This document shows, piece after piece, positions 46,378 through 50,088 of a stretch of 64,000 nt of DNA. The stretch is taken from positions 6,211,174 through 6,275,173 of the forward strand of contig CP151667.1 in the NCBI GenBank assembly GCA_038400315.1. Direction: 5' to 3'. Numbering within the stretch: position 1 is the first letter of the stretch; each line of letters begins with the position of its first letter. Below the pieces are notes generated by a model. That model had not been told where the DNA came from and searched no databases. It saw only the letters and a list, made by a program, of their open reading frames with translations. This stretch comes from Isosphaeraceae bacterium EP7. GTDB taxonomy: Bacteria > Planctomycetota > Planctomycetia > Isosphaerales > Isosphaeraceae. The position numbers were made by a program, and so were the translations under genes.

Positions 46378-46610
46378 CCAGATGATGCATATTCAGGTCG
46401 CCCCGGTGCATGCTTCGCGGCAAGGTGCGTCGCCCTGCGCAGTCACAGCGATTTGACCGGATGCGGAACCGGGGCAAGAGTTGCGTTCCCGTTCGGCGGC
46501 TAGCCTCCCGGACAATCTCGGGGGCCGGCCGACGAATCCTCTATCCACGCAGGCGCCCCAGATCGACCCGACCCGTCGGGTTGAGGCCGCCTGCGAGGGA
46601 GCCACCGACG

Positions 46611-48296
46611 ATGCAAGCGTTCGAGGATCGGAGACCGCCGGGCCGGCCCTATGGGGGCCTGGTCGACCGCCTGCTCCGCTACGGCCTTCCCGGCGTCGTG
46701 CTGCTGATAGCCGCCTGCGTTCTGGCGGTCATGGTGATGTACAACTCGTTCAAGATCGAGGTCGGCACCGGCGAGCAGGCCGTGCTCGTCCGCCTGACCG
46801 GGCTCGACCTGGAACCCGACATGGAGCTGGCCCCGCCCCCCAAGGCCGGCGCCTACTACAAGGGCGTGCAGGCGGGCGGGCCAAATAATGGCGTGCTCAC
46901 CGAAGGTAGGTATTTTTATAATCCGTACGTCTGGAACTGGGAGATCATGCCCCAGTTCGTGGTGCCCCAGGGCAAGATCGGCATCCGCATCGCGCTCGTC
47001 GGCGAAGACCTTCCCGCCGGCCACGCCCTGGCCGATCCCGGCCAGAAGGGGATCATCCGCGGCCAGGCCTTGAAGCCCGGCCGTTACCCGTACAACCCCT
47101 ACGCCGAGACCATCGAGACCCACGACCCGGTCACCGTGCCGGCCGGCTTCCGGGGTGTTCTCACCCTGCTCGCCGGCCGCGAGCCCAAAGACCCGAACGT
47201 CTTCCTGGTCGAGGACGGCGAGCGCGGGGTGCAGACGAAGACGCTGGAGCCCGGCACCTACTTCCTGAACCCTTACGAGACGCGGGTCAGCCAGGTCGAC
47301 TGCCGCTCGCAGCGGTTCAACCTGGGCTCGGAGACCGGCGGCACCGACTTCCTCTCGGCCGACGGATTCCTGGTGTCGCTCGACGGGGCCGTCGAGTTCC
47401 GCGTCCTGCCCGAGCGCGCCGCCGAGGTCTTCGTCAAGTACAACGAGGAGCACGACGGCGACGACATCAAGGACCAGATCATCTCCAAGATCATCACCCC
47501 CGAGAGCCGGTCGATCTGCCGGATCGGCGGGTCGAAGCTCACCGGCGGCCAGTTCATCAGCGGCACCGACCGCGAGGTCTTCCAGCGCGACCTGATCAAG
47601 TCGCTCACCGAGAACTGCAAGAAGCAAGGCGTCGAGATCCTCGCCGTCGCCATTACCTCGATCCAGCCCCCCGAGGAGATCGCCGGCCCGGTCCGTCAGC
47701 GCGAGGTGGCCAAGCAGGAGCGGAGCCAGTTCGTCCAGGAGCGGCTCCAGCAGGTCTCGGAGGCCCAGCTCAAGGTGCAGCAGATCCTCGCCGACCAGAA
47801 GCGCCTGCTCGTCGAGGCCGAGCAGCTCGTCGTCCAGAAGACGACCAAGGCCGAGGAGGAGCAGCAGGTCGCCGTCACCCTGGCCGAGCAGCAGCTCGCC
47901 GTCTCCAAGACCAAGCTGGAGGCCACCGTCGACCAGGCCGCCGCCATCCGGGCCAAGGCCGAGGCCGACGCCGAGGTCATCCGCTTCAACAACAAGGCCG
48001 AGCTCGCCGGCCTCGCCGCGCGGGTGCAAGCCTTCGGCGGCGACGGCGCGGCCCTGGCGCAGAACATCCTCGTGAGCAAGCTGGCCCCAGCCTTCCGCTC
48101 GATCCTGTCCAACTCCGAAGGCCCCCTGATGGACCTCTTCGGCCAGTTCACCGCCGAGCCCCCCCCGCGCCGGCCCGCGGCCGATTCTCCCCAGGCCGCC
48201 GCGAAGCCAGAAGCGAAGCCGGACTCCAAGCCCGAAGCCAAGGCTGACGCCGAGTTGCCCAAGTCGGTCTTCTCGAACACACGGGAGATGCCATGA
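46611..48296 (+). CDS. Membrane-anchored SPFH protein with three 58-residue modules
   Basis: This 561-residue protein has one transmembrane helix (24-44). Modules with a (P/E)GxYxxNPY turn begin at residues 98, 156 and 214, exactly 58 residues apart. An SPFH/band-7 domain follows (about 225-360: 'QRFNLGSETGGTDFLSADGFLVSLDGAVEFRV', 'EILAVAITSIQPPEEI'), then a long Gln/Glu/Ala-rich coiled coil (360-465) and a Pro/Lys-Ala tail (515-550). Band-7 proteins form large ring scaffolds at membranes. The module-SPFH-coiled coil order resembles major vault protein. The ATG follows GCGAGGGAG. It is translationally coupled to the next SPFH gene (ATGA). Confidence 0.85.
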   Translation: MQAFEDRRPPGRPYGGLVDRLLRYGLPGVVLLIAACVLAVMVMYNSFKIEVGTGEQAVLVRLTGLDLEPDMELAPPPKAGAYYKGVQAGGPNNGVLTEGRYFYNPYVWNWEIMPQFVVPQGKIGIRIALVGEDLPAGHALADPGQKGIIRGQALKPGRYPYNPYAETIETHDPVTVPAGFRGVLTLLAGREPKDPNVFLVEDGERGVQTKTLEPGTYFLNPYETRVSQVDCRSQRFNLGSETGGTDFLSADGFLVSLDGAVEFRVLPERAAEVFVKYNEEHDGDDIKDQIISKIITPESRSICRIGGSKLTGGQFISGTDREVFQRDLIKSLTENCKKQGVEILAVAITSIQPPEEIAGPVRQREVAKQERSQFVQERLQQVSEAQLKVQQILADQKRLLVEAEQLVVQKTTKAEEEQQVAVTLAEQQLAVSKTKLEATVDQAAAIRAKAEADAEVIRFNNKAELAGLAARVQAFGGDGAALAQNILVSKLAPAFRSILSNSEGPLMDLFGQFTAEPPPRRPAADSPQAAAKPEAKPDSKPEAKADAELPKSVFSNTREMP

Positions 48297-50032
48297 ACCG
48301 CCGCCTGACCGAGTTCCTGACCGGCACGGCGGTCGTCGTGGTCGCCGTCCTGGCCTTCGCCTACTTCGGCATCTGGCAGTGGATGTTCTGCCGGGTCGAG
48401 GTCCCCCCCGGCCAGAGCCTCCTGCTGCGTTACAAAGGCCCCTTCCCCTTCGGCCTCACCGAGAGCGCCCCGGAGGGAACGCTGGTCGACCTCGACTCCC
48501 GGGGCCGGCCCAAGCTGGTCGGCATCCTGGCCGCCATGCCCGGCCCCGGCCGCCACTTCTACTCGCCGCTCGAGTACGAGCGCAAGCTGGTACCCGACAC
48601 CGTGATCAAGCCCGGCGAGCTGGGCATCGTCAACTCCAAGGCGGGCAAGGCCAGCCCCGACGGCTCTTACCTGGTCGACGAGCCCGGCTACCGAGGCACC
48701 TGGCGCAAGGTGCTGACCCCTGGCCGCTACCGGATGAACGGCTACGCCTACGACGTGAAGGTGGTGCCCGCCGACGCCTGCGTCGACCCCGCAACCGCCG
48801 TGGTGCGCCGCGAGGGCGACCCCATCCTGATTCCCCCCGGCTACGTCGGCGTGGTGACCAACAAAACGGATAACCCCCGGACCAAGCAGGTGCAAGGAAT
48901 CCAGGACCGGGTCTTGCAGCCGGGCCTGTATTACATCAACCCCCAGGAAAAAGTCGTCAGCATCGTCAGCATCGGCTACAACGAGACCAGCCTGAGCGTC
49001 GAGCAGGACGTGGAGGCCACCGCCCGCGCCAACGCCGAGGCCGCCGCCCGTCCCGCGCCGGCCGCCGACGCCCGCCTCTTCGCCAGCAGGCCCGTCCCCC
49101 GCGACCCCATCTACAAGGCCGGCAAGGGGATCGAGTTCCCCTCCAACGACGGCTTCCTGATCCACCTGGACTACACCGCCATCTGGGGCATCGTCCCCGA
49201 CCAGGCCCCAGGCGTGGTCCGCCAGTTCGGCAACCTGAAGGACGTCGAGGACAAGGTGATCCTGCCGCAGATCGGCTCGATCTGCCGCCTCCACGGCTCC
49301 AAGCGAGGCGCCGTCGACCTTCTGGTGGGCGACTCCCGCGAGGCTTTCCAGGAGGAGTCGGCCGACGAGCTTGAGCGGGTCCTCGCCTCCAAGAAGCTCT
49401 CGCTCCTGTTCGGCTTGACCAGGCATATTTATGTGCCGGCGCAAGTGCGAGAGCCGATTCAGAAGGCCAAGATCGCCGACGAGCTGAAGCTGACCAGCGA
49501 CCAGAAGCAGCTCACCGCCAAGGCCCAGGCCGACCTCTCCGAGGCCAAGGCCAAGGTCATCCTCGAGGAGAACCGCACCCGGGCCGAGACCGAGAAGAAG
49601 GTCGCCCAGGTCGCCGCCGAGGGCGAGAAGATGGCCCGCGAGATCGAGGCCACCACCGAGAAGCTCCGAGCCCAGATCGACGCCAAGGCCGCCCTCACCG
49701 ACGCCCAGGCCTCCCGCACCATGGGCGAGGCCCGGGCCAAGACCATCGAGCTGTCCAACCAGGCCAAGGCCGAGCGCTACCGCCAGTACGTCGATTCCCT
49801 GGGAGGCCCCGCCGCCTACAACCGCTACGTCTTCGCCGAGGGCCTGCCCGACGACCTCCGCCTGAGCATCTTCTACGCCGGCCCCGGAACCTTCTGGACC
49901 GACCTGAAGGGCTTCGACCAGACCATGCTCGGCAAGCTAGCCTCCGACCAGACCACAACTCCGGCCCCGGCCAAGCCCCCCCGCGTCAATCCCTCCATCG
50001 CCCCCGCCGGCCTGGAGGCCAAACCTCGCTGA
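48293..50032 (+). CDS. Second membrane-anchored SPFH protein, coupled to the first
   Basis: This 579-residue protein has a transmembrane helix (about 8-30, 'FLTGTAVVVVAVLAFAYFG'). PGxxxxxP-type turns start at residues 85, 143 and 210 (PGRHFYSP, PGRYRMNGY, PGLYYINP), spaced 58 and 67. The SPFH domain follows (about 225-390: 'EFPSNDGFLIHLDYTAIWGI') and then a very long Ala/Glu/Lys coiled coil (about 385-500). The N-terminus overlaps the first gene's stop. The two probably form a hetero-oligomer, as HflK and HflC do, but no FtsH or NfeD partner is adjacent. Confidence 0.85.
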   Translation: MNRRLTEFLTGTAVVVVAVLAFAYFGIWQWMFCRVEVPPGQSLLLRYKGPFPFGLTESAPEGTLVDLDSRGRPKLVGILAAMPGPGRHFYSPLEYERKLVPDTVIKPGELGIVNSKAGKASPDGSYLVDEPGYRGTWRKVLTPGRYRMNGYAYDVKVVPADACVDPATAVVRREGDPILIPPGYVGVVTNKTDNPRTKQVQGIQDRVLQPGLYYINPQEKVVSIVSIGYNETSLSVEQDVEATARANAEAAARPAPAADARLFASRPVPRDPIYKAGKGIEFPSNDGFLIHLDYTAIWGIVPDQAPGVVRQFGNLKDVEDKVILPQIGSICRLHGSKRGAVDLLVGDSREAFQEESADELERVLASKKLSLLFGLTRHIYVPAQVREPIQKAKIADELKLTSDQKQLTAKAQADLSEAKAKVILEENRTRAETEKKVAQVAAEGEKMAREIEATTEKLRAQIDAKAALTDAQASRTMGEARAKTIELSNQAKAERYRQYVDSLGGPAAYNRYVFAEGLPDDLRLSIFYAGPGTFWTDLKGFDQTMLGKLASDQTTTPAPAKPPRVNPSIAPAGLEAKPR

Positions 50033-50052: not shown

Positions 50053-50088
50053 GGACGCATGGGCAAGTTCCATTGTGCCCATGCGTCC
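50053..50088 (+). terminator. Terminator hairpin after the SPFH operon
   Basis: An exact 13-bp stem (50053-50065 with 50076-50088) and a 10-base loop lie 21 bases after the second SPFH stop. A T-tract is absent. Confidence 0.65.

What the first reader, a model, noticed from the sequence alone, without database searches (positions are those of the whole stretch)
46611..50032. Coupled SPFH pair with vault-like 58-residue modules
Both proteins carry an N-terminal transmembrane helix, then three repeated modules marked by a PGxYxxNP turn, then an SPFH domain, then a long coiled coil. In the first protein the turns start at residues 98, 156 and 214, an exact 58-residue period; in the second at 85, 143 and 210. 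Major vault protein has the same order: tandem beta modules of similar length, an SPFH-like shoulder domain and a coiled-coil cap helix. The two genes overlap by ATGA and share a terminator, so they are likely made in fixed ratio. I suggest a membrane-tethered, hetero-oligomeric vault- or HflKC-like cage.
Basis: partly seen in the sequence, partly recalled or inferred. Interest (0 to 1): 0.72.

Follow-up and report, generated by a model that had tools for sequence, protein, structure and literature searches.

The report
Paired membrane proteins with vault-like modules
Two neighbouring genes of a planctomycete bacterium encode a conserved pair of membrane-anchored ring-forming (SPFH) proteins whose first SPFH unit is repeated three times, so that their predicted shape matches the wall-shoulder-cap stretch of the eukaryotic vault protein, although their sequence shows no relation to it.

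Summary
Genes A (46611-48296) and B (48293-50032) overlap by ATGA. Each encodes an N-terminal membrane helix, three homologous ~58-residue modules, an SPFH domain and a ~120-residue helix. Turns start at 98/156/214 (A) and 85/143/210 (B). Correction: the third module is the SPFH domain's own N-terminal subdomain (SPFH1), so each protein has two extra SPFH1-like units.

The pair occurs across Planctomycetota, always A then B on one strand, without conserved neighbours. A and B form two separate clades, so the pair is an old duplication kept together.

The vault comparison is half right. In predicted structures the major vault protein (MVP) is the only PDB family that aligns through modules, SPFH and helix together (A 48-503 to MVP 323-798: repeats 7-9, shoulder, cap). 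By sequence there is no MVP signal (no Pfam Vault or shoulder match; profile scores at the level of shuffles), and true bacterial MVPs exist separately in the phylum. These proteins are not MVPs. MVP's own repeats mostly fail the same sequence test, so distant homology stays open.

Most likely function: a hetero-oligomeric, HflK/C- or prohibitin-like cage on the outer face of the inner membrane, with a taller wall. Assembly is inferred, not shown.

The parts
46611..48296 (+). Gene A: SPFH protein with three tandem SPFH1-like modules, 561 aa
   Evidence: Band_7 at residues 200-380, E 1e-29; SD-like GAGGGAG at 46595-46601; homologs across the phylum
46683..46751 (+). A: transmembrane helix, residues 25-47
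   Evidence: Hydropathy 2.63 over 19 residues, more K/R before than after it across homologs; helix in the model
46752..46958 (+). A module 1, residues 48-116
   Evidence: Profile comparisons, model
46959..47129 (+). A module 2, residues 117-173
   Evidence: Profile comparisons, model
47130..47309 (+). A module 3 = SPFH1 subdomain, residues 174-233
   Evidence: hhalign to prohibitin-1 92.8% and HflC 76.4% at the right place; PHB1 structure starts to align at residue 172
47310..47672 (+). A SPFH2 subdomain, residues 234-354
   Evidence: Pfam, VIA with stomatin SPFH at 232-354
47673..48032 (+). A long helix (coiled coil), residues 355-474
   Evidence: Model, low confidence from about residue 400
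48293..50032 (+). Gene B: second SPFH protein with three modules, 579 aa; ATGA overlap with A
   Evidence: Band_7 at residues 180-413, E 2e-19
48299..48385 (+). B: transmembrane helix, residues 3-31
   Evidence: Hydropathy, model
48386..48601 (+). B module 1, residues 32-103
48602..48787 (+). B module 2, residues 104-165
48821..48982 (+). B module 3 = SPFH1, residues 177-230
   Evidence: Best profile partner is A module 3; prohibitin structures align from about residue 160-175
49130..49438 (+). B SPFH2 subdomain, residues 280-382
49439..49801 (+). B long helix, residues 383-503
   Evidence: Model, low confidence from about residue 440
50053..50088 (+). 13-bp hairpin after B, possible terminator without T-run
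   Evidence: not found by the T-run scan

Best explanation
A and B are the two subunits of an SPFH complex that is conserved in Planctomycetota. Each is anchored by one N-terminal helix in the inner membrane, with the rest probably outside it (periplasm), as in HflK/HflC. Alternating A and B subunits would form a closed ring or dome: long parallel helices make the cap, SPFH domains the shoulder. Two extra copies of the SPFH1 beta unit, inserted between membrane and SPFH domain, would lengthen the wall as MVP repeats 7-9 do, giving a taller chamber over a membrane patch that shields or sorts membrane proteins, perhaps with a membrane protease such as FtsH. Shown: gene pair, conservation, repeats, module 3 = SPFH1, phylogeny. 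Predicted: fold. Inferred: orientation, hetero-oligomer, cage, partner and function.
For: Band_7 in all 37 A and all 33 B homologs. A precedes B on the same strand in all 51 locus entries holding both (overlapping loci included), often with a 4-base overlap. No other neighbour family is widely shared in 20 genomes plus the window. A and B are separate clades (support 94/82 and 100/99). Each module of A matches best the module of B at the same position, so the three-module array predates the A/B split. Predicted helices are of equal length (120 and 121 residues). More K/R before than after the membrane helix across homologs. The best structural matches are hetero-oligomeric cages: prohibitin 1/2 Z 16.8 (A) and 17.1 (B), Erlin 1/2 Z 15.0 and 14.0, HflK/C Z 14.0 and 13.9; MVP aligns over modules, SPFH and helix.
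Against: No experiment and no complex prediction was possible. Helix models are below pLDDT 70 over much of their length. Homo-oligomers of A and of B are not excluded. HflK and HflC equivalog models are far below cut-off. Nearby genomes often carry HflK as well as the pair, so it is not a simple replacement. No genomic link to FtsH was found.
Confidence: 0.65

Rival explanations
1. A and B are divergent relatives of major vault protein: MVP repeats and these modules descend from the same tandem SPFH1 array, and the pair forms a membrane-tethered half-vault.
For: MVP is the only PDB family that aligns through modules, SPFH and helix (A 48-406 to MVP 323-698, rmsd 5.7 A over 287 residues, Z 11.1; B 30-456 to 280-719, rmsd 6.2 A over 312, Z 10.6). 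B matches an MVP fragment of repeats 1-7 only, E 1.8e-5. True MVPs occur in the phylum, in 5 of 6 cases in genomes that also carry the pair.
Against: No sequence signal at all, no Vault or shoulder domain, 3 modules instead of 9, membrane helix present. Modules in A/B are far more alike than MVP repeats are to each other, so the duplication may be independent.
Confidence: 0.25
2. A and B work apart: two flotillin- or stomatin-like homo-oligomeric scaffolds that only share a promoter.
For: Some SPFH complexes are made of a single protein (stomatin, vault, QmcA; PMC12624060); A and B are only about 25% identical to each other.
Against: Strict A>B order over a whole phylum, recurrent 4-base overlap, equal helix length and module number.
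Confidence: 0.15
3. The modules are not structural wall units but a peptide- or glycan-binding beta region of a periplasmic receptor that happens to sit on an SPFH base.
For: Extra beta modules in bacterial surface proteins often bind ligands (general knowledge, not tested here).
Against: Modules are copies of SPFH1 itself and align in register with the MVP wall repeats.
Confidence: 0.08

Closest known systems
HflK/HflC (bacterial FtsH regulator cage)
   Same: Two adjacent genes for two SPFH subunits, N-terminal membrane helix, SPFH1-SPFH2, long helix; structure match Z 14.0 (A) and 13.9 (B)
   Different: Two extra SPFH1-like modules per subunit; below the HflK and HflC model cut-offs (17.0 of 159.4 and 15.8 of 134.4 bits for A, none for B); no FtsH link shown
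Prohibitin 1/2
   Same: Best structural match of both proteins (Z 16.8 and 17.1) and best sequence match of A (PHB1 E 1e-8); known hetero-oligomeric dome (PMC12624060)
   Different: Prohibitins have a single SPFH1 unit directly at the membrane
Major vault protein (MVP), repeats R7-R9, shoulder and cap helix
   Same: Same order of beta modules, SPFH/shoulder and long helix; only PDB family aligned over all three parts
   Different: Nine repeats, no membrane helix, one gene; no sequence similarity to the pair detected
Planctomycete SPFH proteins of about 800 aa with four modules (L051-L058)
   Same: Four modules before and including SPFH1
   Different: A separate, very distant clade with a different C-terminal region

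Membership tests
SPFH / Band 7 superfamily | Band_7 domain over the curated cut-off | tested here: met
   A 104.3 bits, B 70.8 bits, cut-off 23.6; matched in all homologs
SPFH / Band 7 superfamily | Long helix after the SPFH domain | tested here: met
   Models: A 355-474, B 383-503; confidence low in the distal part
SPFH / Band 7 superfamily | Ring- or dome-shaped oligomer | not testable with these tools
   No complex prediction and no experiment available
Major vault protein | Pfam Vault repeat and MVP_shoulder domains | tested here: not met
   No match at E up to 10 in A or B and not among the listed families of the homologs; own genome has no MVP_shoulder. The same models do find human MVP and bacterial MVPs
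Major vault protein | Nine N-terminal repeats and no membrane anchor | tested here: not met
   Three modules per protein and an N-terminal hydrophobic helix
Major vault protein | Repeat-shoulder-helix fold in this order | tested here: met
   VIA and Foldseek alignments of A and B to MVP 323-798 and 280-719; predicted models, rmsd about 6 A
Major vault protein | Common ancestry of the repeats | tested here: inconclusive
   No profile signal, but most MVP repeats do not find each other by this method either, nor does the A SPFH region find the MVP shoulder
HflK/HflC | TIGR01933 / TIGR01932 over cut-off | tested here: not met
   A: 17.0 of 159.4 and 15.8 of 134.4 bits; B: none
HflK/HflC | Two adjacent co-directional SPFH genes | tested here: met
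HflK/HflC | Binding and regulation of FtsH | not testable with these tools
   Needs an experiment

The most novel reading that the evidence does not exclude
Vault wall repeats are duplicated SPFH1 units, and this bacterial pair keeps an intermediate state: a membrane-anchored, hetero-oligomeric SPFH cage with a wall of three such units, i.e. a tethered half-vault. [quoted passage not shown]
Probability: 0.25. Interest if true: 0.82.

Novelty: new variant of a known kind. Interest (0 to 1): 0.56.

Why it matters
The vault is a giant SPFH cage whose function, and how it relates to the cage shape, is unknown. A 2026 in situ study describes the MVP domains as unique to the vault, and vaults as unlike the membrane-anchored SPFH half cages (PMC13100048). 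A conserved bacterial pair that combines a membrane anchor with tandem SPFH1-like units, in the fold order of MVP, would give a tractable system for two questions: can SPFH1 units be stacked into a wall, and did the vault wall arise that way. It also adds a phylum-wide hetero-SPFH pair to planctomycetes, bacteria with unusual membranes.

Tried and rejected
MVP by sequence: hhalign of modules against human MVP gave scores no higher than shuffled MVP; a profile of human plus six bacterial MVPs, and a pooled MVP-repeat profile, gave the same. The only weak signal (75%) is in the helical tail and is not specific. Control: the method finds A module 3 in prohibitin and HflC, but fails between most MVP repeats, so the negative is not decisive.

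Plasmid and virus collections gave no relative of A; plasmids gave no MVP.

Conserved neighbours giving a function: none. Replacement of canonical HflK: this genome lacks HflK over cut-off, but most relatives with the pair have HflK-like genes. The large minus-strand ORFs across A and B were taken as spurious, since the forward proteins are conserved across the phylum.

Full report
What is there. Gene A (46611-48296, 561 aa) and gene B (48293-50032, 579 aa) lie on the plus strand and overlap by ATGA. The start of A at 46611 is supported by an SD-like GAGGGAG 9 nt upstream and by the starts of homologs. Pfam finds Band_7/SPFH in both and no Vault or MVP domain at E up to 10. The genome holds only four Band_7 matches; two of them are this pair.

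The repeats. The turns start at residues 98, 156, 214 (A) and 85, 143, 210 (B). Only three of six match PGxYxxNP strictly; a relaxed form is expected 0.002-0.004 times per shuffled protein. Profiles of the six modules, built from 33-37 homologs each, match one another with hhalign probabilities of 92-99.8%. Each module of A matches best the module at the same position in B (scores 100, 130 and 109), so the array of three predates the split of A and B. The third module is the SPFH1 subdomain: its profile finds prohibitin-1 (92.8%) and E. coli HflC (76.4%) at the proper place, and solved prohibitin structures begin to align at A residue 172. The accurate description is therefore TM, two extra SPFH1-like units, SPFH1-SPFH2, helix.

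Distribution and history. In 294 Planctomycetota genomes, 82 have some match to A; 42 of these have E of 1e-20 or better (counted from the table). A precedes B on the same strand in all 51 locus entries with both (some of them overlapping the same place); a 4-base overlap recurs in distant families. In 20 genomes plus the window no other gene family is shared widely around the pair. A maximum-likelihood tree separates A and B into two clades (94/82 and 100/99) that both span the sampled families. This is an old duplication kept as a pair, as expected for two subunits of one complex. Three modules per protein is the rule (108 of 121 ORFs with module hits; six had two, seven had four).

Structure. 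AlphaFold2 models have pLDDT mostly above 85-90 over modules and SPFH, and lower in the distal helix and tail. Module 3 of A is three main strands plus two short ones; published MVP repeats are antiparallel three-stranded sheets (PMC13347060). The highest Z-scores are SPFH cages: prohibitin 16.8 (A) and 17.1 (B), Erlin 15.0 and 14.0, HflK/C 14.0 and 13.9; for A these cover only module 3 onward. MVP is the only PDB family whose alignment also spans modules 1 and 2. A 48-406 aligns to MVP 323-698 (9bw6, Z 11.1, rmsd 5.7 A, 287 residues) and A 48-501 to 323-798 (9z4w, Z 11.7, large rmsd over 377 residues, probably because of the helix). B 30-456 aligns to 280-719 (9z4w, Z 10.6, rmsd 6.2 A, 312 residues). 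Pfam places R8 at 379-437, R9 at 457-518 and the shoulder at 519-647 of human MVP, so the register is modules 1-3 to R7-R9. B also matches murine MVP R1-R7, which has no SPFH part, at E 1.8e-5. Caveats: these are predicted models, rmsd is about 6 A, and ranges give only the first and last aligned residue.

Sequence test against MVP. The human MVP sequence was written from memory and then found to match PDB entry 11dr letter for letter. Modules against it gave noise. Six true bacterial MVPs were then found in the same phylum by the MVP_shoulder model (L118-L123), and profiles including them still gave no match. The control is sobering: most MVP repeats do not find each other by this method, and the A SPFH region does not find the MVP shoulder either, although they share a fold. 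The sequence negative shows that A and B are not MVPs; it does not settle distant ancestry.

How it probably works. Hydrophobic N-terminal helices have more K/R before than after (mean 4.0 vs 2.1 in A homologs, 2.5 vs 1.5 in B), which suggests N-in, C-out, as in HflK/C. Equal helix lengths (120 and 121 residues), equal module numbers and strict pairing suggest an alternating A/B ring capped by the helices. The extra modules would raise the SPFH ring off the membrane and enlarge the chamber. Known SPFH cages are implicated in membrane organisation and protein quality control (PMC12624060); a similar role is the most likely one, with a protease partner possible. This genome has no HflK over cut-off and no other clear HflK/C pair, but relatives often have both, so the pair is not simply a substitute.

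The order of parts, the repeats, the coupling and the HflKC-like cage idea stand. The vault analogy is right about predicted fold and wrong if taken as membership. [quoted passage not shown] In the searches made here no paper turned up that describes this pair; the library is limited to open-access papers.

Noticed in passing
L118-L123 (genomes G123, G191, G134, G065, G178, G081): True bacterial major vault proteins (MVP_shoulder over cut-off, no detectable sequence relation to the pair) in 6 of 294 Planctomycetota genomes; 5 of these 6 genomes also carry the SPFH pair. Three of the six are from one family, so these are not independent cases.
   Followed up: partly
L051-L058, ORFs of about 735-855 aa (L051, L052, L053, L054, L056, L058; L055 676 aa, cut by the locus end): A second type of planctomycete SPFH protein with four SPFH1-like modules, a separate clade far from A and B, in relatives of this genome that mostly lack the pair.
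   Followed up: partly
G297:C318, G310:C182, G323:C809 and others: Many related genomes have HflK-like genes next to ORFs of about 1035-1300 aa that also match the HflK model; this genome has none.
   Followed up: no
window 50053-50088: Perfect 13-bp inverted repeat with 10-base loop after gene B, z -3.7, without a T-run.
   Followed up: partly
L093 (G000:C1:1492536-1493096): Another SPFH protein of this genome ends in two CxxC pairs (zinc-ribbon-like).
   Followed up: no
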